Source: Methylacidiphilum caldifontis (GTDB lineage: Bacteria; Verrucomicrobiota; Verrucomicrobiia; Methylacidiphilales; CAMAQI01). From it: 37,189 nucleotides of DNA. Where the stretch lies: the NCBI GenBank assembly GCA_945877805.1, contig CAMCSM010000018.1, positions 1 through 37,189 of the forward strand, written 5' to 3'. The translations under genes were made by a program, and so were the position numbers. The notes under the pieces are model-generated. The model ran no database searches, was not told the origin of the DNA, and worked only from the letters and a program-made list of their open reading frames with translations. Shown here one piece after another: positions 5,712 through 37,189 of the stretch. Position 1 is the first letter of the stretch. Each line of letters opens with the position of its first letter.

Positions 5712-5838
5712 AATCTCATCGATCTCATCCTTTCTCCATGGGAGATCAGGAGAAAGTCGTCAATTCCACTAAAATAAATCGCCACAGGGTAAACTTACTT
5801 CCTTGACGACTAACTCCCTTTCTCCCACGGAGAGAGTT

Positions 5839-8466: not shown

Positions 8467-10865
8467 CCTTCTCCAAAAGTAAAAAACTAAAAACAAATTC
8501 ATTTGCCTTTTGGGAGGAGCCTTGGGGAACTTTGCGACTCTACGAAGCCCCTTCTCACCCCCGCTTCTGGTTGCCTGCCCTCAGCTCTCCAATTTGCTTC
8601 CCGTTTGTATTTGCGTTATCACGCAGGGAGTGTGTGAGACAGTGTCTTTGTCTTTATCTTTGCCTTTATCTTGGCGGTTCAATCTTTGCCTTTTCCTCTC
8701 CTCTTACCGATTTCGACAATCGCCCCGAATGGCCCGCACTCTTTAACAAAGATCGATTCCTCCCCCATCTGATCGAAACCGGCTCGCCTGCCTCCTCCTC
8801 GATTCACCGCTCCTGGCTCGAAAACGAAATCGCCCCCCTTCTCCGTCAACCGCTCTTTCTGAGCTCCCTCCGTCAATCCCTTCTCCAAGGGGATAGCGAT
8901 CTCTACGAAACGATGCTCGACTCCCTTCTCTCCCTCAACCTTCCTTCTGATTACGCGCGCGCCCATCTCATGGACTGGATCCTCGGCTCTGAGAACTCCC
9001 TTTGCTCTCCCCTCCTTCAATTCCCGACCGCTCCCGCGGTACGCACCCGTTTTGCCACCTATCTTCTGCATCACTCTCGAAACTCTGATCACACCGCTCA
9101 ACTTATTCTTAAAGCCTGTGAAACCCAAGATCCCTATCTCGAACGCCTCCTTCGAAAAAACAGCGATTCCGTTGAATCAATCGATTGGACCCTCCTTAAA
9201 CGATACCCCCAACTCTCTCCTCAAGCGCAACTGGAGTTTCGCTATCTTCTTTTTCGCGCTCATTCCAAAAAAAGAAATGACATTCACTCCCCCCATACAA
9301 ATGAAAAAAAAGAGCCCCCCTTTGCCTCCCTTCTTTGGGATCATCTCCTTAAAAAAATTGAACTTTCCCCCGTTCTTCGCAACGACTATCAAACCGGAAT
9401 CACTCAACGCAACGAGCCGGAACAATGGACACGCGAGGCCCTCACCGAGGCCCTTCGCCAAAATGAAGCGGACTCTTGGTTTCAATCCTATCTTCAAGCG
9501 GCGCAAATCCCGCACAGTCGCTATCAAGCCGTTTTTCTTGCCCTCACCCAAAACCGTGCTGAGAAAAAGGCACGCCCCGAACTCATCGCCGAATCAAGCC
9601 AAGAGCGAACCCCTTGGCGCGCTCGGCTTGTCCAACTCATTCAAAACGATCCCCGTTGGTCTGCCTACTTTCTCTGGCACCTCACTCGCGCCGCAGAACC
9701 GATCACCCTCCAATGGCGACGCTCCCTTCCCGCACTCTTCGCTCAACGAGAAACCGTCACCCTCGATTGGCTTCGATGGACTCCTCACGCTCCGACCTCC
9801 CTCTCCTCTGCTGAACTCAAAGCTTGGGGAATTCATTGGGGAGAGACCTTGCGAGATCAAGATCAGGAATGGAAAAAATTATGGAGCCATCACGATCTCG
9901 TCACTCAATCGCTTCTTCAAAAAACGCTCATTGCCTCCCTTGAATCGAACCCGACCCTCGTCACAACTTGGGTCGCCATCCTCCAGGAGCATCAACCCTC
10001 CCTTCAAAATTCCTTTGCCCTTTGGACTCAACAAAATACCCCCCACCCCGATCTCATTCATCTCCCGGTTTTTATGAATCGACTCACCGCCTCCCTCCAA
10101 CGCAAAGAGTGGGTCGGCAATCTTGATCTCGCCCTCTTTCGAGTCGCTTTCAGTAACTTCCTTCGCTCGCAAGAGGGGTGGAATCAACTCTCGTGGCGCA
10201 TCGGACTCGAATCCTATCAAATCGCGCAACCGCTCCGAGAGCTCCTCCTTCAACACTGGCGCCAACATCCAGAAAATTTCTGGAAACTTCTCAGCTGGAG
10301 AACCGTTTACTCCCCTGATCCCCAAGCCGAACAAAAACGACTGCTTTGGATTCGATCCCATAAAATTTCCGAGAAATCGCTCCTCGCCCTCTCAAAGCAA
10401 AATCCGGAGATCCAAACCGCTACCGGCTCACTCTGGCTCGATCTTTTTCAATCCAATCTCACTTTCCAAAATGCCCTGAAAAGCAAAAGAGCCACCCCCG
10501 CACAACAGGATGACCTCGATCAACTCCTCGCCTCCATTCCTTCTCTTGAAAGCCCCTCCCTAAAAACCTCCATCGAAACCCTCCTCCTTTGCGGGGGAGA
10601 TTCCGCCCTCGCCGATTGGATCCTCCGTCGCGCCGATCTTCAAAAAATTTGGATCACGCAATTCGAAACGAAACTTCTCCAAGAACCGCTTTTTCTCCAA
10701 CAAATGACCGAATCTCTTTTGAAAGAGAAACAGCTCTCCCCCGATTCCTTATCGGAACTCATTACCCTTCTCCTCGAAGATCGTTACCTCTTCGAAACCG
10801 TTCTTTCCGATCCCACCCTCGGATTTAAAACAGCAACCTCCACTCCTCACTGCCCTTCGGATTGA
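8463..10865 (+). CDS. Large helical-repeat protein coupled to VirB4-like ATPase
   Basis: Not recognised. 800 residues, coupled to the ATPase by an ATGA overlap, which fixes the start at 8463. After residue 90 the protein is strongly helical, rich in Leu, Gln, Arg and Trp, with recurring units of the form LLxxPLFLxxxxxSLL (LLRQPLFLSSLRQSLL and LLQEPLFLQQMTESLL) and many NPxL/DPxL turns, suggesting an alpha-solenoid. Near residues 48-80 lies a Cys/Leu-rich hydrophobic segment encoded by a dispersed repeat (8620-8682); it could act as signal or membrane anchor. An in-frame GTG at 8634 preceded by AGGGAG is an alternative start that would give a short signal peptide. Context suggests a partner of the motor, perhaps on the envelope side; this is inference. 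Confidence 0.7.
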   Translation: MTFSKSKKLKTNSFAFWEEPWGTLRLYEAPSHPRFWLPALSSPICFPFVFALSRRECVRQCLCLYLCLYLGGSIFAFSSPLTDFDNRPEWPALFNKDRFLPHLIETGSPASSSIHRSWLENEIAPLLRQPLFLSSLRQSLLQGDSDLYETMLDSLLSLNLPSDYARAHLMDWILGSENSLCSPLLQFPTAPAVRTRFATYLLHHSRNSDHTAQLILKACETQDPYLERLLRKNSDSVESIDWTLLKRYPQLSPQAQLEFRYLLFRAHSKKRNDIHSPHTNEKKEPPFASLLWDHLLKKIELSPVLRNDYQTGITQRNEPEQWTREALTEALRQNEADSWFQSYLQAAQIPHSRYQAVFLALTQNRAEKKARPELIAESSQERTPWRARLVQLIQNDPRWSAYFLWHLTRAAEPITLQWRRSLPALFAQRETVTLDWLRWTPHAPTSLSSAELKAWGIHWGETLRDQDQEWKKLWSHHDLVTQSLLQKTLIASLESNPTLVTTWVAILQEHQPSLQNSFALWTQQNTPHPDLIHLPVFMNRLTASLQRKEWVGNLDLALFRVAFSNFLRSQEGWNQLSWRIGLESYQIAQPLRELLLQHWRQHPENFWKLLSWRTVYSPDPQAEQKRLLWIRSHKISEKSLLALSKQNPEIQTATGSLWLDLFQSNLTFQNALKSKRATPAQQDDLDQLLASIPSLESPSLKTSIETLLLCGGDSALADWILRRADLQKIWITQFETKLLQEPLFLQQMTESLLKEKQLSPDSLSELITLLLEDRYLFETVLSDPTLGFKTATSTPHCPSD
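8620..8682 (+). repeat. Dispersed repeat family B, copy 2, inside a gene
   Basis: CTTTGT, CTTTAT, CTTTGC and CTTTAT units followed by CTTGGCGGTT, the same core as at 3431-3470 and (inverted) 15525-15564. The left part, GTGTGAGACAG, resembles the GTGTGAGACAGG end at 15706-15716. It lies in frame in the 800-residue protein and encodes its only strongly hydrophobic stretch. Confidence 0.6.
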
Positions 10866-13965: not shown

Positions 13966-15528
13966 ATGAGTTCCTCTTTTCAACGAAGTTTTGCGTTGGC
14001 AGGGGCTGCTCTCTTTTTAGGGTTTCTGCTTTGTTGTGCCTGTGCCCCGGAATGGAGAGTGAATCCACAATATGGTTATGGCTGGTTTGTTCCCTTGATC
14101 CTTTTTTATTTGCTCTTGGTTCGCTTGCGAGAGTTTTCCGAGCAGGAGTCCCCTCCCCGATTAAGGAGCTCAACCGTGGCGATGGTCGGGGGATTACTTT
14201 TGCTCGCATTAGCGGTGGAGTGGACTCGACTTCAACATCCGCCGATGCGGTTGATCATGGGGATGCAAGGGGGGATTTGGTTTCTTTTCCTGATTTTCGC
14301 GTGGAGAGATTTTTCGATCGGAGTTCGTCGGGGGATGCTCTTTCCGGCGCTTTTACTTTTGACGGTGATTCCATGGCCGACCCGAATCGAGGAGCCGTTG
14401 ACGCGAGCCTTGATGTCGTGGGTGACGGGGATTGCGATGGAGTTGATCCACTTTGCGGGGATTGCGTCGCGCCGCGAGGGGGAGTTGATTATTTTGTCCA
14501 ATGGAGTTGTGGGGGTCAGTGAGGCTTGTAGTGGGATTCGGTCGTTGCAGGCCGCTTTTGTTTTTTCGCTGATATTAGGGGAGTGGCGTCAGGGGTCGAT
14601 CACGAGAAGAGGGGAGCTTTTTTTGGTGGGGATTGGATTGGCGCTGTTGGGAAATCTTCTGAGGACCTTGGGGCTTTGTGGGATCGCCTCTTTTTATGGA
14701 ATGGAGTCGATGGAGCGATGGCACGATTTTTCAGGGAATCTATTATTGATGACGATCATGGGAGGATTAGTGGGGTGGAGTTTTTGGCGAATCCGACAAC
14801 AGGAGCGAGAGGGGAGTGAGCAGGAGCTGGGAGCGGCGCTGAGGAGATTAGGGCATCATCGTTGCGTGGGGATGACGGTTATTTTGATGCTGGCGCTCTG
14901 TCTCTTGGGGGGGATGCGCGGAGCTGTTTATTTTCAGCAAAAAGCGGAGGGAGTGGAGAGTTCTCCTTCAGTTCAATGGATCCGATCGGAGGGGGATCGA
15001 ACTTTGGGGATCACCTCGGAGGTTTGGAGGAATTTGCGTTGTCATTCAGGGGAGTGGATTGAGCGTCAGGGGGAGGGAATCGATTTTGAGAAAATGGAGT
15101 TTTACCGTTTTTATTGGAAACCGATTCGAGACTCACAAGGGGTGCGGTTGCATCGACCGGATTGGTGTATGAAAGGGTTGGGATGGAAGCGCGTGGGGGA
15201 ACCGATCGCAGGGGAGATGGAGGTAGAGGGAGGGAAACTGCACGGATATTGGATTCACTATCGGAAGCCGGGGGGGGAGGCGATTCAATTTTGGACCTTG
15301 CTTCGAAATCAGGAGCGAGTGGAGGTCGATTTTAATACGGCGTCATTAGTCGAGGAGATGAGTTTGCGCACTTTTTTAATTCCTCGGGAGGAGCGTTCGA
15401 GTTGGGAGATGATTTCGCTGGTGGTTTCGAGTCCCTGGATGGTTCCGGAGCAGAAGCAGGTGGAGGAGATCGGGAGAAAGAGAATCCAGAAAATTTCTCT
15501 AAGGGAGGCAGGAAAGCAGGAAAATTAA
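13966..15528 (+). CDS. Exosortase fused to EpsI-like domain
   Basis: 520 residues. The first 290 residues carry about eight membrane segments with the exosortase catalytic residues: C188 in SEACSGIRSLQ, R233 in NLLRTLGL and H253 in RWHDFSGN. Exosortases process proteins with a C-terminal PEP-CTERM-like tail at the inner membrane. The last 200 residues form an EpsI (DUF3485)-like domain with LHRPDWCMKGLGW, fused here rather than separate. It starts 20 bp after the GH5 stop. No protein in the window has a recognisable PEP-CTERM tail, so the substrates lie elsewhere. The stop codon coincides with the start of a family B repeat. A run of eight G (15270-15277) lies in the EpsI part. Confidence 0.92.
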   Translation: MSSSFQRSFALAGAALFLGFLLCCACAPEWRVNPQYGYGWFVPLILFYLLLVRLREFSEQESPPRLRSSTVAMVGGLLLLALAVEWTRLQHPPMRLIMGMQGGIWFLFLIFAWRDFSIGVRRGMLFPALLLLTVIPWPTRIEEPLTRALMSWVTGIAMELIHFAGIASRREGELIILSNGVVGVSEACSGIRSLQAAFVFSLILGEWRQGSITRRGELFLVGIGLALLGNLLRTLGLCGIASFYGMESMERWHDFSGNLLLMTIMGGLVGWSFWRIRQQEREGSEQELGAALRRLGHHRCVGMTVILMLALCLLGGMRGAVYFQQKAEGVESSPSVQWIRSEGDRTLGITSEVWRNLRCHSGEWIERQGEGIDFEKMEFYRFYWKPIRDSQGVRLHRPDWCMKGLGWKRVGEPIAGEMEVEGGKLHGYWIHYRKPGGEAIQFWTLLRNQERVEVDFNTASLVEEMSLRTFLIPREERSSWEMISLVVSSPWMVPEQKQVEEIGRKRIQKISLREAGKQEN

Positions 15529-25870: not shown

Positions 25871-28864
25871 TTATTTCGTTCGCGCCTCAAGTGTCACGGG
25901 CCCCAATAAGCCTGAGGGGAGGAGCGGTGAATCGGCTTTGTAGAACTGGGTTGAATTCGTAAAGGTGTATCGTCCGGTCTGGATCTTCTTTCCTTCAAGC
26001 AATCCTTCGGGCCATTGAAGCGTTCTCACATTCGCGTCTTCCGGTTGGCTATCGCCAATGAGTCGATTCGGCCATCGATTGACGACTTCGATTTTTAGTT
26101 CGTTCTTCCCTTTTTTAAGCTTTTGGGTCAGCTCCACTTCCCACGGAGCGGTCCAAACGACGCCCAGATCTTTTCCGTTCAAATAAACCCGCGCCATGTC
26201 GTGGACGACGCCCAGATTCAGATAGACTCTTTTATTGGCGTCAGGGGTAAAATTGAAGGTTTTGGAATAGGCGGCGATTCCCGAATAGTATTTGATCCCT
26301 CGTTGATCACTGGTTGTCCAATCGTGGAGAGTTTCAAACGAAGTCTTTTTCGGTCCTCCCCATCGAGGATCAAATGAAACCTCCCATGATTTCGATAGAT
26401 CGAGAACCACTTCCGAGTTTGGAAAATCGATCGTCGAGGGAGAATTGTTTGAGGCGGTGGTTTGTCCATGGTGGAGATCGTTCCCTTTTTTTTGTTTAAA
26501 AAAGATAAAGTAACTCTGATGCGATTCAAAGGGGATCGTGAGAGCGGTCACCCCCCCTTTTTGTTCATAAGAAACCAAAGGGGTTGTTTCGCCGGAGATC
26601 GGATTCCAGAGTTCAGGGGTTCCCGTGGCGACCCGGAACACGCATGGACTCACCGTCTTCTCATTGGTTCGATTGGAGATAAAATAAAACTCCCCATCCT
26701 CCAGTTGATGATGCGCATAGCGGATCTTTCCGTTTCCGATGAAATCTTGAAGGACTCCCCTCGATTTTAAAATTTTCGAGGTCGCTTCATACGAGGGATA
26801 AATCGAGCCCCTAACTTTTGGAATCACGGGAGAATTCAGCTCGCCGCCCCAATAAACACTCCCCAATCCAAAGGGGCGGTGCGTCACTTTCGAAGGAGTT
26901 TTCAGAGAACCCCAAATTTCTTGGGAGAGCTTTCGAACGGTTTGGTCACAGGTCGGATAGTTCGTCAGGCTCGGTGACTTGAGCGGAGGGTTTCCAACGA
27001 TCGTCGCCCCGGACTGTACCAGTTCCTTGATTTTTGTGATGAGAGGGGGAGTCATCATTTTAAGTTTTGGGAGGACTAGCATCGAATAGGAGGCACCCCC
27101 GGGAAAAACGATGCGACCCTCTCGAACGCTCGCTTTTTCGATCAATATCTTGGGCGAACAGAGATCAAACCCGTAGCCTCGCTTATCCAGAATCGGACTG
27201 ACCCCCTCAAAAGCGTCCTCCGGTGGATAGGCACTGCAAGGGGCATCCTCTCCCGTGAGATAGAGCAACTCCGCGGTCGTGGTTCCCTGTTGCATCAGAT
27301 GTGAGCAGCGAGAGAGATAATCATGATAGTCTTCGACCATCGGCCACCATGTTTGACCCCGATTCCAATTCACTCCATAGGGACCAAAGGTCATTCCAGG
27401 TCGATTTTGATCGCCAAAAGGTTGATGGGCGAAGGTATGGAAAAAGAAACGATTAATCCCCATGGTGAGCGCCCAGTCTCCTTGATTTTTTATGGAAGTC
27501 GGATATTCAATCCATGGATCAGCCGCGGATGTGAAAGACTCTGTTGCGACGATCTTTTTTCCCAAGACATGTCCAATCGATGTGGCGTTCCATACGGAGA
27601 ACGAGGAATTGAAAGTCTCTTTCCAAAATTCACCCATCGGGATGTCGGCGCAAGCCCCGAGATTAAAATCCCCGGCAGGATTCATATCATAGGGCTCGAT
27701 AGAAAGATTCATTCCATGCTTGGATCCCCAATTTTTCATGGCGATCGTATGCACTTCCGTCACAAGTTCACTACAGGTTTGACGCACATCCCAAAGAAAG
27801 CGTTCCGATTTTTCGAACTCTTCAATCACTCGACCTGAAAAAATCGGAAGTAAAGGACGAGCATCGTAACCTCGACGTTTATGAAAATCGTTTAAAAAAT
27901 CCTTTGTCCAGTTTTGAGCCCCGACTTCCCAGCTATCGCTATGGAGTGTTTTAATCGGATTTCGATCGACCCCGATTTTTTTAATCAAGGATCCCACATA
28001 ATAATCCAGATGATCCTCAACCGGTTTTGCGCTTAATTTATCGGTCTCCTGACCGATTCCTGCCTCTGGGGCGGGTCTTGTGACGACCCCCGTGTTTCTT
28101 CGGGTCATCCGAAGGATTGTCCAATCCCCTGGAGGAACCTCCCACCGCAATTTGCCTCCGGGTTTTAAGAATTTCGTGAGATCGATCATTGATCGAGGAT
28201 CGATATTTTGACCCTGAACTTTTTCTTTATCACTTCCTGGCTCACTTAAAAAGGGATTCACATTCGGATCGGAGCTGATGGGACCTCGATAATAAAGAGC
28301 CTTTTCCTCAATCTCTCCAATGCGGGGATTACTGCGTGGAAAGGCGTAAACCGCGACATCCTCGTAATAAGGTCTTTCGACCGGAGCCCACTGCGTGAAA
28401 TGTTGTTTTCCCAAGGGAAGTTCACCCTCATAAACAGAAGGACCCTTCACCTCAATTTCGCTGGTGACGAGATGCTGCATGGCCTCTTCCGGTTTGACCC
28501 AGGGCCCTCCCGCTCCGCACCAACCGGGACCTGTTCCCAATACGATATCAATACCCATCTTCTCCGCCGCAATAAAGCTTTTGGAAACGTTATCAAGCCA
28601 AGGCTCGCTCATCATTTTGACTTTCCCTTGGGGAACTCCGACATTGACCTCCAAAAAGAGCGCCCTTCGGAGTCCTGCCTCTTTCATCGAACGAAGATCC
28701 TCGATCATCTCCTTCTCGTTCATATTGCCATCATTAAAGTACCAGTAAACCCCCGGACGCGCCGAATCGGGGGGATGCATGAATGCTTCACGAAGAGACT
28801 CGTCCGCCCCTAATGCGAAAGAAAAGCAGAGTAAAAGGAAGAATAGTTGATTTTTAATTTTCAT
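25871..28864 (-). CDS. GH106-like alpha-L-rhamnosidase, secreted
   Basis: 997 residues. A signal peptide (MKIKNQLFFLLLCFSFALGA) is followed by a barrel domain whose opening (PPDSARPGVYWYFNDGNM, then DLRSMKEAGLRRALFLEV and GPGWCGAGGPWVKPEEAMQ) is typical of the GH106 group. The C-terminal beta-domains include a galactose-binding-like region (VYLNLGVVHDMARVYLNGKD and ELKIEVVNRWPNRLIG). GH106 enzymes remove alpha-L-rhamnose from plant or algal polysaccharides. The frame extends to 29014, but the signal peptide fixes the start at 28864. It is divergent from a sugar symporter gene across 215 bp, suggesting shared control of breakdown and uptake; no operator was recognised there. Confidence 0.85.
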   Translation of the reverse strand: MKIKNQLFFLLLCFSFALGADESLREAFMHPPDSARPGVYWYFNDGNMNEKEMIEDLRSMKEAGLRRALFLEVNVGVPQGKVKMMSEPWLDNVSKSFIAAEKMGIDIVLGTGPGWCGAGGPWVKPEEAMQHLVTSEIEVKGPSVYEGELPLGKQHFTQWAPVERPYYEDVAVYAFPRSNPRIGEIEEKALYYRGPISSDPNVNPFLSEPGSDKEKVQGQNIDPRSMIDLTKFLKPGGKLRWEVPPGDWTILRMTRRNTGVVTRPAPEAGIGQETDKLSAKPVEDHLDYYVGSLIKKIGVDRNPIKTLHSDSWEVGAQNWTKDFLNDFHKRRGYDARPLLPIFSGRVIEEFEKSERFLWDVRQTCSELVTEVHTIAMKNWGSKHGMNLSIEPYDMNPAGDFNLGACADIPMGEFWKETFNSSFSVWNATSIGHVLGKKIVATESFTSAADPWIEYPTSIKNQGDWALTMGINRFFFHTFAHQPFGDQNRPGMTFGPYGVNWNRGQTWWPMVEDYHDYLSRCSHLMQQGTTTAELLYLTGEDAPCSAYPPEDAFEGVSPILDKRGYGFDLCSPKILIEKASVREGRIVFPGGASYSMLVLPKLKMMTPPLITKIKELVQSGATIVGNPPLKSPSLTNYPTCDQTVRKLSQEIWGSLKTPSKVTHRPFGLGSVYWGGELNSPVIPKVRGSIYPSYEATSKILKSRGVLQDFIGNGKIRYAHHQLEDGEFYFISNRTNEKTVSPCVFRVATGTPELWNPISGETTPLVSYEQKGGVTALTIPFESHQSYFIFFKQKKGNDLHHGQTTASNNSPSTIDFPNSEVVLDLSKSWEVSFDPRWGGPKKTSFETLHDWTTSDQRGIKYYSGIAAYSKTFNFTPDANKRVYLNLGVVHDMARVYLNGKDLGVVWTAPWEVELTQKLKKGKNELKIEVVNRWPNRLIGDSQPEDANVRTLQWPEGLLEGKKIQTGRYTFTNSTQFYKADSPLLPSGLLGPVTLEARTK

Positions 28865-29079
28865 AAAATAATCAGGATTTCTCATAAATGAATGAGGGAG
28901 AGAGGGCTCAATTAGTGGGAGGGACCTGATCCTGTGAGATAAGTCCACGCAATCGAAGCAAAGCTTTGCTTTAAAAAAGACGCCTAGAAACGGATTCATT
29001 CTGTAAATATGCACGCGTAATCTCGAAATTCAACTTAAATGATTGATTTTGATCATAAAAAAAATAGAGTGGGATAATT

Positions 29080-30522
29080 ATGAATAATGCAAAGGATATG
29101 CAAAATTCTTTAAAAAAAGTTTCTTTGAGTAAAAAAGTGGCATGGGGTGCCGGGGGACTTGCCGATAATTACATGCTGGGTGTCCCCAATCAGTTGGCGA
29201 TGCCGATCTATAATATTGGCTATGGAGTCAGCGCGGTTTTGATTGGATTCGCTTTGGCGGCGCCTCGGTTGCTTGACGTATTTTTTGATATTCTCGTGGG
29301 GAATTGGTCCGACAATACACGATCCAAGTGGGGTCGTCGAAAACCGTGGATGGTGGCAGGAGTCTCGATTTGCGTCTTTTTATTGCCCCTACTTTGGATT
29401 CCTCCCTTTTCGAGTGAACAGGGGCGGTTTATTTACTTTTTAATTCTCTCATCGCTTTATTTTCTTGGGTATAGTCTTTTCGTTGTCCCTTATACGGCGA
29501 TGGGCTATGAGTTGACGACCGATTATGAGGAAAACACCAAGATTTTGGCGTGGAGAATGTATATCGGATTGATCGGGAGTTTTACGGTTCCCTGGGTCTA
29601 TAAACTCTGCTTTCTGCCGATTTTTGGGAAAAACGATTTGGAAGGGGTGAAATGGGTCGCTGTGATTGTTTCGGGGATTATTATATCGGTCGGGTTGCTT
29701 CCCGTTATTTTTTGTAAAGAGAATGAAAAGACTTTTCATCAAGATAAGATCCCTTTGAAAAAGGCGCTGATCCAGGCATTTAAAAATAAAGCATTCCGGA
29801 TGATTTCAGTGGGTTACATTTTAATCCTATGGGGTCTTGTTTCGTCGATGACGATCTCCATTTATGTCTACATTCATGTGGTTTGTCGGGAGAATAAGGA
29901 GCTAGCTTCCGAGATCGTTGGTTGGTGTGGCTCCGCGACCGCTCTGACTTCTTATTTAAGTCTTCCTCTTGCGGGGTGGTTCTCGGTGAAATTCGGAAAA
30001 AAGGAAGCGATGGTTCTCTCGCTCCTGATTGCGCTTCTCGGTATTTCACTTTATATTTTCGTTCTCAATCCCCATGTCCCCTTTTGGAGCATTCATTGCT
30101 TTGGACGGTTATTTCAGATTCCCTATCTTCAGATGATTCCCGCAATGGTCTTTGGAATGGGGATGCAGGGAGCATGGCTCTTGATTAGCGCGATGATCTC
30201 GGATGTCTGTGACGAGGAGGAATGGATCTCTGGGGTTCGACAAGAAGGGATTTTTAGCGCGGTCAACAGTTTTTCCCAGAAAGTGGCAATGGGTGGCGCG
30301 GCCTTGACGGGAGGACTTTTATTGAAGTGGGCCGGTTATACCACGGGAGTCTCTCCTACCGAGTCAATTGGGCAAAACCTCAAATGGCTTTACATTGGAG
30401 GTCAAGGACTGGGAATTATCTTGGCGATTGTTCTTTTCTGCTTTTATCCCATTTCGCGCGCGCGCGCACTGGAGACAAGGAGGATTTTAGATGAACGATA
30501 TCATAAAAATAATCAATTCTAG
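29080..30522 (+). CDS. GPH family sugar:cation symporter
   Basis: 480 residues with about 12 membrane segments. The N-terminus (KKVAWGAGGLADNYML) and the loop 2-3 motif (DILVGNWSDNTRSKWGRRKPWMVAG) are signatures of the glycoside-pentoside-hexuronide family (MelB, YicJ). These carry oligosaccharides, pentosides or uronides inward with Na+ or H+. Divergent placement from the rhamnosidase suggests uptake of its products. The 3' end includes a GCGCGCGCGC run. The start at 29080 is the first of two close Mets (the other is at 29098). Confidence 0.92.
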   Translation: MNNAKDMQNSLKKVSLSKKVAWGAGGLADNYMLGVPNQLAMPIYNIGYGVSAVLIGFALAAPRLLDVFFDILVGNWSDNTRSKWGRRKPWMVAGVSICVFLLPLLWIPPFSSEQGRFIYFLILSSLYFLGYSLFVVPYTAMGYELTTDYEENTKILAWRMYIGLIGSFTVPWVYKLCFLPIFGKNDLEGVKWVAVIVSGIIISVGLLPVIFCKENEKTFHQDKIPLKKALIQAFKNKAFRMISVGYILILWGLVSSMTISIYVYIHVVCRENKELASEIVGWCGSATALTSYLSLPLAGWFSVKFGKKEAMVLSLLIALLGISLYIFVLNPHVPFWSIHCFGRLFQIPYLQMIPAMVFGMGMQGAWLLISAMISDVCDEEEWISGVRQEGIFSAVNSFSQKVAMGGAALTGGLLLKWAGYTTGVSPTESIGQNLKWLYIGGQGLGIILAIVLFCFYPISRARALETRRILDERYHKNNQF

Positions 30523-30567: not shown

Positions 30568-31155
30568 ATGATAAATATGAGTTGTAAATCCCTAATAGTT
30601 CACTACTTTAAAGGAGTGATTTTCTGCTCTTTTTTTTATTCTAAAAAAGGTTTCGTACCCAATGCTTTTCGCGCTTTTTCATTGATCGAGGTGGTATTGG
30701 CGGTGGGGATTGTCGCGGTGGCGGCGATCCCGCTGATGGGACTTATTCCTGCCAGTCTTAAAAATACGCAGATCTCTTCCGAGGAGACGCAGGCCTTGCG
30801 ATTAATGACGGCTGTGGTGCAGGATTTTCGCTTTACCCCCTTGAGCAAGTCGCGGTCGGAGATTTTCAAGCTTCCATCGCTTCCGTACAATGGGGCGCAG
30901 CTCAACACCGAGAACAAAGTCTGGGTCGATTCCTACTGGATGGTTTATCCTTACAATCAAAAGCCCTCAGGTCAGGCGTTCGAGCTGGAGTGGAAATATG
31001 GCGTGATTCCTGAACAAAATAGTTTTGCGGCGGTGGAGGCGACCTTTGTGGTTCGTTGGCCCGCAACGGTCGATGAGACCTCGGGATCTCAAAAAAAGAA
31101 AAAAGTCGGGGGAGAAGTGAGCTGTCTCGCCGCCTTTCCTCGGCCAAGAGAGTGA
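30568..31155 (+). CDS. Prepilin-like protein (Verru_Chthon cassette B-like)
   Basis: 195 residues. A prepilin motif AFSLIEVVLAVGIVAVAAIPL gives cleavage between A36 and F37 with Glu at +5; Ala replaces the usual Gly at -1. The leader is long from the first ATG (36 residues); a GTG at 30616 after AAAGGA would give a 20-residue leader and may be the real start. The ensuing IPASLKNTQISSEETQALRLMTAVVQDFR resembles the Verru_Chthon cassette B family of Verrucomicrobiota, recognised from memory. Such pseudopilins may assemble into short fibres in type II secretion or type IV pilus-like machines. The second pseudopilin follows after 17 bp. Confidence 0.78.
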   Translation: MINMSCKSLIVHYFKGVIFCSFFYSKKGFVPNAFRAFSLIEVVLAVGIVAVAAIPLMGLIPASLKNTQISSEETQALRLMTAVVQDFRFTPLSKSRSEIFKLPSLPYNGAQLNTENKVWVDSYWMVYPYNQKPSGQAFELEWKYGVIPEQNSFAAVEATFVVRWPATVDETSGSQKKKKVGGEVSCLAAFPRPRE

Positions 31156-31172
31156 TCGATCGGAATTAAAAT

Positions 31173-32000
31173 ATGGCATTAAAATTGAAAAAAGAGAAGA
31201 GCTTCACGCTGGTCGAGCTCTTGGTTGCGATGGCGATCACGTCGGTGCTTGTTTTTCTTTTTGTACAGATGATCGATCTCGTGAGCCGCTCGATCAAGCT
31301 TTCATCCCAGATGATGGACTCCAATGCGAAGGCAAGATTTGTGTTTGATCGGATGGCGATGGATTTTGAGCGGATGCCCAAACGGTTGGATATGGGTTAT
31401 GTGATGACCAATGCGGCTCCCGGAAATGATTTTTTTCGCTTTGTCTCCCGATTGAAAGGTCCCGGAGGGGATCGAACGGTCTCTTTGGTCGGATACAAGT
31501 TGATGAAAGATGCCAAAGGATATTATGGGCTCTATCGGGGGGTTCATGGGTATAACTGGGAGGATCTTGGGTTTATGGGATTGAACGAAAGCGGACAGCC
31601 CCCGGATCTTTTGAACCTCAATCCCGCGATCGCGATAAGGAACGACGATTATGATCTATTGGTTCCTGATCTTTTCCGTGTCACCGTGGCGTTTCAATGT
31701 AAAAACGACGGCAAAATTTATCGGGATCCCCCGCAATTTTCCGATGGAACGGTTCAAATCACCAATATCGCCTCCGTCGTGGTTGGATTGGCGATCATGG
31801 ATAGTAAAACCAAAGGAATGATGACACTGGAACAAGTCGATTTGCTGGCGAGCAAGTTTGTCACGCCTCGGGATGAAGTGCTGCCCTATCAGGCATGGAG
31901 CACGAACCTTGAAAAAGGATTTCCTCAATTCATGGAGGGCTTGCCAAAGCCCGTCGCTCAATCCGTTCACATTTACCAGAATTTCTACCCTTTGGATTGA
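31173..32000 (+). CDS. Prepilin-like protein (Verru_Chthon cassette C-like)
   Basis: 275 residues. The prepilin motif KSFTLVELLVAMAITSVLVFLFVQM has the Glu at +5 but Ser at -1 in place of Gly, so processing by a standard prepilin peptidase is uncertain. The region RFVFDRMAMDFERMPKRLD resembles minor pseudopilins of the GspJ/cassette C type. It follows the first pseudopilin by 17 bp, presumably one operon. The very large cassette A protein and cassette D expected in full sets are not here; a jelly-roll protein and a glycosidase follow instead. Confidence 0.78.
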   Translation: MALKLKKEKSFTLVELLVAMAITSVLVFLFVQMIDLVSRSIKLSSQMMDSNAKARFVFDRMAMDFERMPKRLDMGYVMTNAAPGNDFFRFVSRLKGPGGDRTVSLVGYKLMKDAKGYYGLYRGVHGYNWEDLGFMGLNESGQPPDLLNLNPAIAIRNDDYDLLVPDLFRVTVAFQCKNDGKIYRDPPQFSDGTVQITNIASVVVGLAIMDSKTKGMMTLEQVDLLASKFVTPRDEVLPYQAWSTNLEKGFPQFMEGLPKPVAQSVHIYQNFYPLD

Positions 32001-32089
32001 TGATCGACATCAAGGGTATTTTATTTTGAGACGACTACTTTAGAATAAAAATAACTTTACTTTCCGCAAACCATTGCTTATTTAATTAA

Positions 32090-32815
32090 ATGAGGTTAAA
32101 AATAATATTATTTAAAAGACTTTTGTTAACCGTTTTTTTTACCTCAATCATTCAATTACTTTATTGCGAAGAAGTCATTTTTTTTGATGATTTTAGCAAT
32201 AGCGGCTCGACAGGCAAAGCTTTGATGGGCCGTCTGCCAAAAATGGCCCCTCGGGGAGGGAGTTGGAACGCCCCATCTGTAAATTATGTTAAAAATCAAA
32301 AAGTCTTTACAAGCGATGGTTATGGCGGAGGCTTTCTGACGGTTCCAGAGATAAAGGAGGAGATGAAGAGTTTTCTTTTGACTGGAAAGTTTTATCCGCT
32401 GGGGGACAAGGGTTACATGGTTTTCGGCTTTTTTAGACAAATTGAAATAGATCAGCTCTCATTAGGCGTTACGATCTCAAATAAACCACAATCCGATCTT
32501 GCCTCGTTTCAGGTTCGTTACAATCTTTTAGGGAGTGGTGCTCTGCAAAGCGGGGAAATAAAAAAAGCCACGGATGAGGCTCCGTATGAAGTCTCTATTT
32601 TATATCTCTTTGAGAGTCAAAATTTGAAGGTGACGATTAATGGAGAAGTTGTTTATGAGGGTGGGTTTGAATTTAAAAAAGACTCAACTCAAGTCAAAGA
32701 TGAAAAATCTAAGGATCTTAATTTTTTAGGATTTGTTTTTGAACATCAATACGTTGAAGATCCCGAAGCAAATGCCTATTTTAAAGAAGTAAAATTCGTT
32801 GTGAATCCAGATTAA
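32090..32815 (+). CDS. Secreted jelly-roll-like protein
   Basis: 241 residues, no firm family. A basic start and hydrophobic core (LLLTVFFTSIIQLLYC) form a signal peptide, after which FFDDFSNSG, alternating beta-strands, and LKVTINGEVVYEGGF suggest a concanavalin/LamG-like sandwich as in carbohydrate-binding modules. It lies 6 bp before a glycosidase gene, so it could bind the same glycan or be an accessory to the pseudopilins upstream. Function is inferred. Confidence 0.7.
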   Translation: MRLKIILFKRLLLTVFFTSIIQLLYCEEVIFFDDFSNSGSTGKALMGRLPKMAPRGGSWNAPSVNYVKNQKVFTSDGYGGGFLTVPEIKEEMKSFLLTGKFYPLGDKGYMVFGFFRQIEIDQLSLGVTISNKPQSDLASFQVRYNLLGSGALQSGEIKKATDEAPYEVSILYLFESQNLKVTINGEVVYEGGFEFKKDSTQVKDEKSKDLNFLGFVFEHQYVEDPEANAYFKEVKFVVNPD

Positions 32816-32821
32816 TGAATT

Positions 32822-35011
32822 ATGAAATATTTCCCATGCTTTGTTGTTTTTTGGTTTTTTATGATTCTTTCTCCCAAGATGCCTGCATCTAGCGAGAATA
32901 TTGAAAAAGTGCCCCCTCTTTTTCCGAAGGTGATGTGGCAGGGAGGAGAAAGGGAAAGTGCCTTGATTCAAAAGTTTTATCAAACGCATGATTATTATCT
33001 TTTCAATTTATATGCGACACTTTGGGATGCTTGGCTTCCCGAAATCGCTCTTTCCATGTATGAACGAAAGAACGGGGAAGAAGTCTTAGGTAAAAAAACA
33101 AAATGGCTCCTCGATATCCGCGATATAGATCAATCTGGATATGTTTCTACAATGCAACATCGCGGGTTAGGGCATCCTTTGGGTTGGCCCTTTCCTCTTT
33201 TCACGCAAATAGAGGGACCGGGATGGGTCTTTGGCGCTCCTGGACTCCCCTATGTGGGAGGTCACAACATAGAGCTCATTGAAAATCTGAATGGGTGGGA
33301 GTTGAAAGGCGTTGAAATGGGGGAGCCCACTGAGAATTCAGGAAGAAAATTTAATTTGACCCAAGCAAACGCGGAGATGACGACTCCCTTTATATCATCA
33401 TCCCGGAATGCGGCACCAAATTTCCGTCTCGATTTAAAGCAAATGGATCCAACGATGAAAATCAGACCTTATCTTCAATTGAAAACAAAAAAGAAGATGA
33501 ATTTTGAGAGTTTCAAAAAAGTCTATTTCGAGTTAGCAAAGCGAAATCCGGAATGCGATTATTATTGGGCTCAAGTGCATCCTTTTGTAGATGAGGGGGA
33601 TCTTATCACAGGAATCAAACTGGGCTTTGAAAATAATACCCCGGGGTCGATCGATCTTCAGGTTTTTGCGTCCGCAGTGGATACGCGGCATCCGCTGAAC
33701 AATGCCTCCTATTTGAAGGGGATTTCGGACTATTATCTTTGGACGGGAGATGTTAATTTTCTCTCAAAAAATATAGAAAAAGCGAGAAAAGCCCTCGAAT
33801 ACATGGTCACGGAATTTGATTTGAAATCGGGGATTGGAAAGATTCCTTGGTTCGGCCATAATGGAAAAAGCGGTCTTCGTGTTCAAGGGGGACACGTGGA
33901 AATGATTCCTGGGATGGGGATTGGCTCGAACTACTTCGACTTGCTACCTTGCGGAGGGGATGATTTTTATACGACGATCTATGGCTATTTCGCTTTGAAG
34001 AAATGGGCGGATATCGAGGAGATGATCGAAAAAAACGCTGCATTATCCATCCCGTCCGCCAAGGCCGATTATTCGTCGTCGTCGCTGAGAAAAATAGCCG
34101 ATAATTTGAGAAAGAAGGGGAGCGAAAGATTTTGGGATCCGAAGGTCGGTCGTTTTGTGACTAGTATCGACGTCGATGGTGTTGCCCATGACTATGGATT
34201 TACGACTCTTAACTTGGAAGCGATCCACTACGGTTTTGCGGACAAGGAGAAAAGTGCCTCGATTCTGAGTTGGATCGATGGTGCGAGAAAGATCGAGGGG
34301 GATACCTCCCAGGGATCGGATATCTATCATTGGAGAATGGGGCCCCGCGTCACAACGAAAAGGAACGTTGATTGGTATACCTGCGTGTGGAATGCCCCGA
34401 GTTCGATTCCTTGGGGAGATCAAATTCAGGATGGGGGGTCTGTTATTGGATTTTCGTATTTCGATCTGATGGCGAGGTTGAAAAATTTGGGAAGTGAAAA
34501 CGCGAAGAAACGTGTTTTGGAGATATTGAGTTGGTTTGAAGAGACTCAAAATGAGGGGGGATACCGTGCTTACTATTCTAAACCGGATCGAGGAACACTT
34601 CAAGGAGGGGGACCTCCGGGAGGACTGGGAGTCGACAATGAGTTTTACGAATCGCTCTTGCTCCCACAGGTTTTTCTTCAAGGCTTCTTCGGTTTTGAAC
34701 CGAAAACCGATGGCTTTGCGCTTGATCCTAAAATTCCTTCCGATTGGAAGAACTACGAAGTCTCCGCATTTTCCTGGAAGGGGGGATTGATGCGAATCAA
34801 AGCGATTGACGCCCGTCATTGGGAGATCGAGCGGTTAAGCGGAGATCCGTTGAAAACATTGCTTTATCTCAAGGAAAATCTCAAAGGAACCGTCCTGACA
34901 AAAGGGGGTGATAAAAAAGAGAGTCGCAATGAATTCAAAATCACCGCTGATCACCCCGCTCTTTTAATAGTTCTTGAAATCGGAAAACCTGTTGAAATAC
35001 AAATCGACTGA
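32822..35011 (+). CDS. Six-hairpin ((alpha/alpha)6) glycoside hydrolase
   Basis: 729 residues with a signal peptide (MKYFPCFVVFWFFMILSPKMPAS). The middle (about residues 270-620) is an alternating helical barrel: SYLKGISDYYLWTGDVNFL, KARKALEYMVTEFD and GGDDFYTTIYGYFALKKWAD, with acidic spots and many Trp/Tyr. The C-terminal beta-domain begins FFGFEPKTDGFALDPKIPSDW, the pattern seen at the end of GH65/78/94/95-like enzymes. The specific family and the substrate cannot be decided by eye; a catalytic pair is not assigned. It is in one run with the jelly-roll gene (6 bp). Confidence 0.75.
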   Translation: MKYFPCFVVFWFFMILSPKMPASSENIEKVPPLFPKVMWQGGERESALIQKFYQTHDYYLFNLYATLWDAWLPEIALSMYERKNGEEVLGKKTKWLLDIRDIDQSGYVSTMQHRGLGHPLGWPFPLFTQIEGPGWVFGAPGLPYVGGHNIELIENLNGWELKGVEMGEPTENSGRKFNLTQANAEMTTPFISSSRNAAPNFRLDLKQMDPTMKIRPYLQLKTKKKMNFESFKKVYFELAKRNPECDYYWAQVHPFVDEGDLITGIKLGFENNTPGSIDLQVFASAVDTRHPLNNASYLKGISDYYLWTGDVNFLSKNIEKARKALEYMVTEFDLKSGIGKIPWFGHNGKSGLRVQGGHVEMIPGMGIGSNYFDLLPCGGDDFYTTIYGYFALKKWADIEEMIEKNAALSIPSAKADYSSSSLRKIADNLRKKGSERFWDPKVGRFVTSIDVDGVAHDYGFTTLNLEAIHYGFADKEKSASILSWIDGARKIEGDTSQGSDIYHWRMGPRVTTKRNVDWYTCVWNAPSSIPWGDQIQDGGSVIGFSYFDLMARLKNLGSENAKKRVLEILSWFEETQNEGGYRAYYSKPDRGTLQGGGPPGGLGVDNEFYESLLLPQVFLQGFFGFEPKTDGFALDPKIPSDWKNYEVSAFSWKGGLMRIKAIDARHWEIERLSGDPLKTLLYLKENLKGTVLTKGGDKKESRNEFKITADHPALLIVLEIGKPVEIQID

Positions 35012-35131: not shown

Positions 35132-35264
35132 TCTCTGACTCTCAAGATCGATTCGCTTTGCACCAAACCCTTTCACTCCCCGTTTCAAGACATTGAAACC
35201 TTTCGTAGCACTGAATTTTTACTTGAAATATGTAAAAAAACACCACATGCTTTATCGAGTTCAT

Positions 35265-37189
35265 ATGAAAACTTTCCGTTTTAAGATTTTTTTTGTTTTT
35301 TATATGATTTTTTTATCTTTCCGACACTCGCTTTTAGGAGCCTCCGTTTATACGGGAGTCGCAGGCGGGGATTTTGCCACGGGGGGGAATTGGAACGCAG
35401 GAGTTCCCATTGCTGATACAGGTTTTATCATCAACGGAAGTTCCACCATTTTATCGACGGTACTGGGCGGTTCTGTTGCGCAACTTTTTATCGGTCATGG
35501 AGGAGGGAATGGAACGCTTACCATTCAAGCGGGGGGAAGCTTAACGACGACCAGTGGTATCAGTTTAGGCCGAGATGCGGCAAGGACGGGAATCATGACT
35601 ATTTCCGGAGGAAGTGCCACGATTAACGGGAATCTGACTATTGGAGATTGGGATGGGGCTGTAAACGGAGGGGCTTCGACCCTTAATTTCAGTTCAGGAA
35701 CATTAAACACCAATACAACTGTTGAATCGGGGAATGGCAATGCAGGGAGCCTGATCGATATGTCGGGTGGAACATGGACACTCACCAACGGAAATCTCGA
35801 TCTGACCCGGCGCAATGCCTCCACTCTGACGATGAGCGGTGGAGCGATGACTTTTGATGCGACACACGGGATCACCTTTGGAGTTGGAGGAGGCACAGGG
35901 GGAATCCTCAACCTCACAGGAGGAACGATCACTCTCGGAACCCAAGGCATCGCCTCGGCAGGAGGATCGCATACCCTCAATTTGGGAGGTGGAACACTCA
36001 AAGCGGGAGCAACATGGAGTTCCTCGATGAATATGGCACTCACAGGAACAGGCGGCGATGTCACCTTTGATACCAATGGAAATCAAATCACGTTGACCGG
36101 AGCGTTGACCGGAACAGGAGGTCTGATAAAAGCCTCCACAGGAACGCTCAATGTCAATGGCACCTCGAACACCTATTCAGGAACCACAACAATCAATGCT
36201 GGAACCGTAAAAGCGGGGGCGGCGAACGCGCTCAGTTCGAGTTCAGCCGTGAGCTTGGCGAACACGGCAGGAGCGATTTTAGATTTAAATAGTTTTAGTA
36301 ATACGATCGGATCACTTGCAGGCGGAGGAACGACCGGAGGAAACGTGACGCTTGGGACCGCAACGCTCACCACGGGGGGGGATAACACAAGCACGACTTA
36401 CGCAGGGGTGATCTCAGGAACAGGAGCGGTGATTAAAAATGGAACGGGAACACAAACCTTTACGGGAACGAATACGACCAGTGGAACGTTGACGATCAAT
36501 GCCGGAACGGGATCGATCGGAACGGCTGCGGGAGGAAGTTGGGCCGGATCTGTGATTGCGAATTCGGGAGGAACCCTCAAAGGACGGGGAACGATCGGAG
36601 GCAACGTGACGATTAACTCTGGAGCGACTTATGCTCCTGGAAACTCTCCAGGGATTCAGTCGATCGTCGGAAACCTAACCCTCGCCTCCGGTTCCCGGAC
36701 GGAGATTGAGATCGATGGAGCGACTCCCGGGAATGGAGCGGGGTTCCATGATCAGATCAACGTCACAGGAACCGTGACGATCCAAGGGGGAACGATCGCT
36801 CCGATGAATCTCTTTAGTGGCTCCAGTGGCTACACCCCTGCCGCAGGTCATCGCTTTGCGGCGATTACAGGAAGTTCGGTCACGGGAACCTTTACGACGA
36901 TTGATAACTCTGGAAACACCGCCGGACTCTCCTTTATTCCAGAATACACTAACAACACCGTTTTTCTACGAACAACCTTTTCAACCTTCGCCAATAACAG
37001 CACCTTGGGACTCACAGGGAATCAGATCCAAGTGGCGGCGCAGCTCGACAGTTTTCGACCGGCCACGATTGTGACGGGAGCCAATGCCACTGATGCCGAT
37101 CGGATTTATGGAGCTTTGACGTTATTGAATAATGAAGGGGTGAAGAGTGCGATCACGCAGATGAGTCCTGAGAAATTAAGCGCAATGCC
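35265..37189 (+). CDS. Autotransporter with beta-strand repeats (3' end beyond window)
   Basis: An open frame from ATG 35265 runs without stop to the window edge (641 codons). A signal peptide (core IFFVFYMIFLSFRHSLLGA) is followed by a Gly/Thr/Asn/Ser-rich passenger. Autotransporter-associated beta-strand repeats are visible (GLIKASTGTLNVNGTSNTYS and AVIKNGTGTQTFTGTNTTSG, each followed by GTxTINAGT). GNVTINSGATYAPGNSPG and the linker QVAAQLDSF...GALTLLNNEGVKSAI precede what should be an outer-membrane beta-barrel beyond the edge. It would be displayed on the surface or secreted. A run of eight G (36374-36381) lies in the passenger. Confidence 0.9.
   Translation, partial: MKTFRFKIFFVFYMIFLSFRHSLLGASVYTGVAGGDFATGGNWNAGVPIADTGFIINGSSTILSTVLGGSVAQLFIGHGGGNGTLTIQAGGSLTTTSGISLGRDAARTGIMTISGGSATINGNLTIGDWDGAVNGGASTLNFSSGTLNTNTTVESGNGNAGSLIDMSGGTWTLTNGNLDLTRRNASTLTMSGGAMTFDATHGITFGVGGGTGGILNLTGGTITLGTQGIASAGGSHTLNLGGGTLKAGATWSSSMNMALTGTGGDVTFDTNGNQITLTGALTGTGGLIKASTGTLNVNGTSNTYSGTTTINAGTVKAGAANALSSSSAVSLANTAGAILDLNSFSNTIGSLAGGGTTGGNVTLGTATLTTGGDNTSTTYAGVISGTGAVIKNGTGTQTFTGTNTTSGTLTINAGTGSIGTAAGGSWAGSVIANSGGTLKGRGTIGGNVTINSGATYAPGNSPGIQSIVGNLTLASGSRTEIEIDGATPGNGAGFHDQINVTGTVTIQGGTIAPMNLFSGSSGYTPAAGHRFAAITGSSVTGTFTTIDNSGNTAGLSFIPEYTNNTVFLRTTFSTFANNSTLGLTGNQIQVAAQLDSFRPATIVTGANATDADRIYGALTLLNNEGVKSAITQMSPEKLSAM

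What the first reader, a model, noticed from the sequence alone, without database searches (positions are those of the whole stretch)
30568..35011. Pseudopilin pair linked to a jelly-roll protein and a glycosidase
Two prepilin-like genes with Ala or Ser in place of Gly at -1 lead directly into a secreted jelly-roll protein and a six-hairpin glycosidase, in a polysaccharide gene cluster. Full Verru_Chthon sets have A-D members; here only B- and C-like ones appear. They may display or export the carbohydrate-active proteins.
Basis: partly seen in the sequence, partly recalled or inferred. Interest (0 to 1): 0.52.

Follow-up and report, generated by a model that had tools for sequence, protein, structure and literature searches.

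The report
Secretion-tip pseudopilin pair in polysaccharide locus
Two small pilus-like proteins sit in a sugar-degradation gene cluster, and related sets recur in many such clusters in relatives, which suggests (untested) that each cluster brings its own tip for a shared protein-secretion machine.

Summary
The gene pair is real. Both proteins are prepilin-like, and a model of the second has the fold of T2SS GspJ. They lie in a tight same-strand run: sugar symporter, B, C, secreted protein, glycosidase-like protein. Ala/Ser at -1 is ordinary in this lineage. The jelly-roll call could not be verified, and the six-hairpin call is weak. 'Only B and C' holds inside the window. But the contig breaks inside a downstream autotransporter gene whose tail probably lies on contig C51, next to a lone A gene, so an A partner is probably near. 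The own genome carries nine cassette loci or parts. Of 80 related stretches fetched in the order, 62 hold A plus B, C or D. Their neighbours are enriched in LacI-type regulators (9 of 100 against at most 1 of 114 controls) and include carbohydrate enzymes. Most likely these are extra GspH/I/J/K-type tip sets, one per polysaccharide locus, on shared secretion machinery whose own operon already encodes GspG-K. The cargo step is inferred. A 2026 paper reports a pulG-like pseudopilin in an alginate operon, so the theme has precedent; I found none for the cassette-to-tip reading.

The parts
25871..29014 (-). GH106 alpha-L-rhamnosidase, divergent from the operon
   Evidence: PF17132 543 bits
29080..30522 (+). 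GPH-type sugar:cation symporter, first gene of the run
   Evidence: PF13347 221 bits; TIGR00792 174 bits, under its cut-off of 231
30568..31155 (+). B-like minor pseudopilin (GspI/PilV type); Ala at -1; start codon uncertain, long leader
   Evidence: TIGR02598 44.6 bits, gspI 19.1 bits, both under cut-off; 42-48% identical to B of C60 and C2
31173..32000 (+). C-like minor pseudopilin (GspJ/PilW type); Ser at -1
   Evidence: model pLDDT 79.3, VIA-align Z 9.4-10.2 to GspJ/XcpW/EpsJ and one type IV-like pilin; 51% identical to C of C60
   Evidence: signal peptide by eye; no family; no relative in 286 genomes of the class except itself
32822..35011 (+). secreted 729-aa glycosidase-like protein
   Evidence: signal peptide by eye; GH65 C-terminal domain 21.9 bits; 32% relative in G045
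35193..37187 (+). autotransporter-type passenger (PATR repeats) cut by the contig end; bridge to contig C51
   Evidence: PF12951; its last 400 residues 71% identical to a full-length paralogue on C78

Best explanation
The pair is a GspI/GspJ-type minor-pseudopilin pair of the Verru_Chthon cassette kind, expressed with one polysaccharide locus that is probably rhamnose-related. After cleavage by the genome's single prepilin peptidase, B and C, probably with an A (GspK-like) partner, cap a pseudopilus built by shared T2SS/T4P-type machinery and adapt it to proteins of that locus. The gene pair, the GspJ fold of C (on a predicted model), the recurrence and the linkage are shown. Cotranscription, processing, assembly and cargo choice are inferred.
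For: C adopts the GspJ fold: of the ten best rows nine are GspJ-type or T2SS pseudopilus or type IV-like pilin chains of this fold class (eight T2SS entries, two entries of the Thermus pilin TTHA1219, all Z 9.4-10.2); the next row is unrelated at Z 3.9. Cassette partners match the other minor pseudopilins: A to GspK, D to GspH, B to GspI/PilV, all under equivalog cut-offs; one own A is a clear TIGR02600 member at 947.6 bits. The own T2SS operon already encodes GspG-K, so the cassettes are surplus sets, and no cassette gene scored best as GspG among those tested. One prepilin peptidase. Nine own loci hold cassette genes; six of nine have a Pfam-confirmed carbohydrate enzyme or sugar transporter in the stretch read. 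Order-wide neighbours: LacI-type 9 of 100 against at most 1 of 114, Fisher p 0.005, plus GH35, GH78, CBM4_9, pectate-lyase-like and MFS_2 families.
Against: B and C miss every curated cut-off of the Verru_Chthon and Gsp models. No A or D in the window. The secreted neighbours differ from locus to locus and the window's has no relative, so no co-inherited cargo is shown. C71, C122 and C70 showed no confirmed carbohydrate enzyme in what was scanned. The neighbour test is a sample, and its table shows only the 25 commonest families. Nothing shows that these pseudopilins are assembled by a T2SS rather than a T4P; the genome has several PilB/GspE-type ATPases.
Confidence: 0.5

Rival explanations
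1. The cassette caps a type IV-type pilus that binds the polysaccharide or particle, so its role is attachment or sensing, not enzyme export.
For: PilV-like N-termini of some B proteins; the fold of C is shared with the type IV-like pilin TTHA1219 of Thermus, a top row; PilT-like genes adjoin the C2 pair.
Against: A T2SS-type GspG-K set exists in the genome; the neighbours include secreted enzymes.
Confidence: 0.25
2. The cassettes are general minor pseudopilins of one secretion system; their place beside sugar genes gives substrate-dependent expression only, with no cargo specificity.
For: LacI/AraC-type regulators nearby; secreted neighbours are not conserved.
Against: The T2SS operon already has H-K; B and C differ strongly between loci.
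Confidence: 0.15
3. The window's pair is a decaying remnant of a cassette that lost A and D.
For: No A, D or E in the window; A on C70 is broken; G001 has a truncated C alone.
Against: B and C are intact and 42-51% identical to C60/C2 copies; the contig end hides the flank; D-B-C sets without A exist in relatives.
Confidence: 0.1

Closest known systems
Verru_Chthon cassette proteins A-D (TIGR02600, TIGR02598, TIGR02599, TIGR02596)
   Same: gene kinds, N-terminal similarity and neighbouring arrangement; one own-genome A is a full member
   Different: window B and C score under the cut-offs; A and D absent from the window; these are subfamily models with no function in the descriptions shown
T2SS minor pseudopilins GspH-I-J-K
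   Same: C has the GspJ fold; A/B/C/D match K/I/J/H models weakly
   Different: several sets per genome in sugar loci, without a recognised major pseudopilin; most A proteins are about 900-1,200 residues against 307 for the own GspK
pulG-like pseudopilin of the alginate cluster of Verruconatronum alginivorum (PMC13274419; section 17 part 1 and passages read)
   Same: a pseudopilin in a polysaccharide cluster reported as upregulated as a single operon on alginate; 67 homologues in the genome
   Different: described as a pulG-like pseudopilin, not a B-C/A-D set; that paper proposes T2SS export of the alginases without a test of the pseudopilin

Membership tests
Verru_Chthon cassette protein B (TIGR02598) | score at or above 51.4 bits | tested here: not met
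   44.6 bits, positions 1-61 of 151
Verru_Chthon cassette protein C (TIGR02599) | score at or above 256.5 bits | tested here: not met
   31.4 bits, positions 1-57 of 361
Verru_Chthon cassette | A and D genes in the same cluster | tested here: inconclusive
   none in the window; contig end cuts the locus; lone A on C51 probably adjacent
T2SS minor pseudopilin GspJ (C protein) | GspJ fold | tested here: met
   predicted model, Z 9.4-10.2 to GspJ-type chains, next unrelated 3.9
T2SS minor pseudopilin GspJ (C protein) | equivalog cut-off of TIGR01711, 64.85 bits | tested here: not met
   17.6 bits
T2SS minor pseudopilin GspI (B protein) | equivalog cut-off of TIGR01707, 44.35 bits | tested here: not met
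   19.1 bits
type IV prepilin / pseudopilin | F+1, E+5 and a hydrophobic helix | tested here: met
   A|FSLIE and S|FTLVE; PF07963 28.1 bits for C, over the 21.2 cut-off, 18.9 for B, under it (B 21.8 and over)
type IV prepilin / pseudopilin | Gly at -1 | tested here: not met
   Ala and Ser; common among related sets
type IV prepilin / pseudopilin | cleavage by prepilin peptidase | not testable with these tools
   one candidate peptidase in the genome
GH65 / six-hairpin glycosidase (729-aa protein) | Pfam cut-off of PF03633, 22 bits | tested here: not met
   21.9 bits
jelly-roll protein (241 aa) | jelly-roll fold | tested here: inconclusive
   model pLDDT 40.9, mostly strands

The most novel reading that the evidence does not exclude
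Verrucomicrobial genomes carry interchangeable GspH/I/J/K-type tip sets, one per polysaccharide locus, which mount on common T2SS/T4P-type machinery and give it a substrate-regulated choice of cargo. A secreted family 'E', coupled translationally behind A, would be a fifth part of many of these sets.
Probability: 0.35. Interest if true: 0.75.

Novelty: new variant of a known kind. Interest (0 to 1): 0.52.

Why it matters
How a type II secretion system chooses its cargo is still open (recalled). Many natural tip sets in one genome, each tied to different substrates and regulators, would let that question be tested by swapping tips. It would also give a function to cassette families known only by name.

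Tried and rejected
Rejected: the -1 residue as evidence of specialised processing. Rejected, by sequence only: homology of the window's secreted 241-aa protein to family E or to the secreted proteins of C60/C1/C2/C70. Rejected: T2SS-only or T4P-only assignment from sequence models, as all matches are weak and shared. A fold for the 241-aa protein was not obtained, so it was not fold-searched. Foldseek alone gave no match under 0.001 for C (best 5.6e-3, XcpV-XcpW); the claim rests on the VIA-align second look. Direct sequence overlap between the window end and C51 was sought and not found; adjacency rests on the split autotransporter and its C78 paralogue. Literature searches without result: Verru_Chthon, TIGR02598; useful listings came.

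Limits of counts: the 80 stretches were chosen from the visible part of a truncated hit list, so they favour loci with a C gene. ORFs were called as longest non-overlapping frames, and B/C/D labels are best-scoring of my own profiles, so architecture counts are approximate. Neighbours: 100 of 173 eligible genes were scanned, those over 1300 aa passed over; controls: 114 of 187.

Full report
What is there. The window is the whole of contig C18 of a 2.94-Mb draft genome. On the + strand run a GPH symporter (29080-30522), a B-like pseudopilin (30568-31155), a C-like pseudopilin (31173-32000), a secreted 241-aa protein (32090-32815) and a secreted glycosidase-like protein (32822-35011), with gaps of 45, 17, 89 and 6 bases and no + strand terminator-like site between them. 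A GH106 rhamnosidase is divergent, and a PATR autotransporter passenger follows and is cut by the contig end.

Identity of the pseudopilins. Both carry the prepilin start. B is nearest to Verru_Chthon B and C to Verru_Chthon C, both under cut-off. A model of C from four sequences (pLDDT 79.3, pTM 0.73) aligns with GspJ-type pseudopilins and the Thermus pilin TTHA1219 at Z 9.4-10.2; the next row is unrelated at 3.9. Other cassette proteins of the same genome match GspK (A), GspH (D) and GspI or PilV (B) weakly. The cassette therefore looks like a set of minor pseudopilins, the parts that form the tip of a pseudopilus (recalled).

The -1 residue. Ala, Ser and Gly all occur at -1 in the related B and C sets, and Ala is common in the genome's other prepilins. 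It is not a sign of special processing.

Copies in the genome. N-methyl and A-profile searches and the stretches read give nine loci: C18 (B-C), C60 (A-B-C), C2 (A, and B-C about 8 kb on), C1 (A divergent, B-C), C37 (D-B-C-A), C71 (B-C-A), C122 (B-C-D-A), C51 (A alone), C70 (broken A). Six of nine have a Pfam-confirmed carbohydrate enzyme or sugar transporter in the stretch read: C18, C60, C2, C1, C37 and C51. C71, C122 and C70 did not, and not every gene there was scanned. The T2SS operon on C95 has its own G, H, I, J and K; GspG passes its cut-off, the others match under theirs. There is one prepilin peptidase and there are several GspE/PilB-type ATPases.

Is A really missing? No A, D or E-like gene was found in six frames of the window. 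The last 400 residues of the window's last gene are 71% identical to residues 24-436 of a full-length paralogue on C78, and a 103-aa fragment at the end of C51 is 86% identical to its residues 667-774. Four autotransporter-domain matches exist, on contigs C78, C58 and C51. The simplest reading is one gene split over an unassembled stretch of about 0.7 kb. C51 then adds a lone A, a LacI regulator, and GH106 and GH78 rhamnosidases. No end overlap was found, so this is inference.

The order. A C profile found matches in 36 of 62 genomes, up to 26 in one; family f7 has 0 of 13. Of 80 stretches fetched, 62 hold A with B, C or D, and 37 of these hold a further secreted family E, mostly overlapping A's stop by a few bases or more as called. 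E has no Pfam or NCBIfam match in the members tested (two for Pfam, one for NCBIfam) and is absent from the own genome. It occurs in 21 of 62 genomes; three of these, in f7, are marginal partial matches. D-B-C sets without A also occur within longer contigs (L077, L092, L094, L135). TIGR02600 gives some match in 156 of 288 genomes of the phylum, over cut-off in 8, and in none of 14 control genomes.

Neighbours against controls. Of 100 sampled neighbour genes, 9 match a LacI-type sensor domain; in 114 control genes that family is not among those with two or more members, so at most 1. Fisher's test with that worst case gives p 0.005. GH35, GH78, CBM4_9, pectate-lyase-like, F5/8 and MFS_2 families are listed for neighbours and not in the visible control list, which does show two GH5-type matches. 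The tables show only 25 families each (of 114 and 151), so this is a coarse test.

Mechanism. Shown: GspJ-fold protein (predicted model), linkage, recurrence, surplus over the T2SS's own set. Inferred: cotranscription, cleavage, capping of a shared pseudopilus, cargo choice. I rate cargo-adapted tips at about 0.5, a pilus tip for attachment at 0.25, general tips with regulated expression at 0.15, and a remnant at 0.1.

Literature. PMC13274419 (section 17 part 1 and passages read) reports a pulG-like pseudopilin in an alginate gene cluster described as upregulated as a single operon, with 67 homologues, and suggests T2SS export of the alginases. PMC12487129 (passages) notes enrichment of pilins and pseudopilins in two Verrucomicrobiae populations. 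The searches named under Tried and rejected found no paper naming the Verru_Chthon cassettes in this library. The theme is therefore partly known, and the cassette-as-tip reading appears new within what I could search.

Noticed in passing
L107:1985-2743 and 38 other loci (family E, alignment A8): Unnamed secreted family of about 230 aa directly behind Verru_Chthon-type A genes, often overlapping their stop by 4-8 bases; no Pfam or NCBIfam match in those tested.
   Followed up: partly
L077, L092, L094, L135: D-B-C pseudopilin sets without A, beside regulators and genes that look like sugar catabolism.
   Followed up: partly
window 13966-15528: Exosortase (PF09721); PEP-CTERM proteins occur near cassettes on C37 and C51.
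   Followed up: no
window 5803-8466: TraG/VirB4-type P-loop ATPase (PF19044) outside any recognised conjugation operon, followed by an 811-aa protein without a Pfam match.
   Followed up: no
L174 (G000:C70) 8815-10689: A-type gene, 50% identical to that of C51, with a stop inside; a secreted 248-aa protein lies beside it.
   Followed up: partly
L022 (G001:C151) and L023 (G000:C1): A cassette shared by two genomes of the genus at 93-99% protein identity, far above their other cassettes; possible recent transfer.
   Followed up: no
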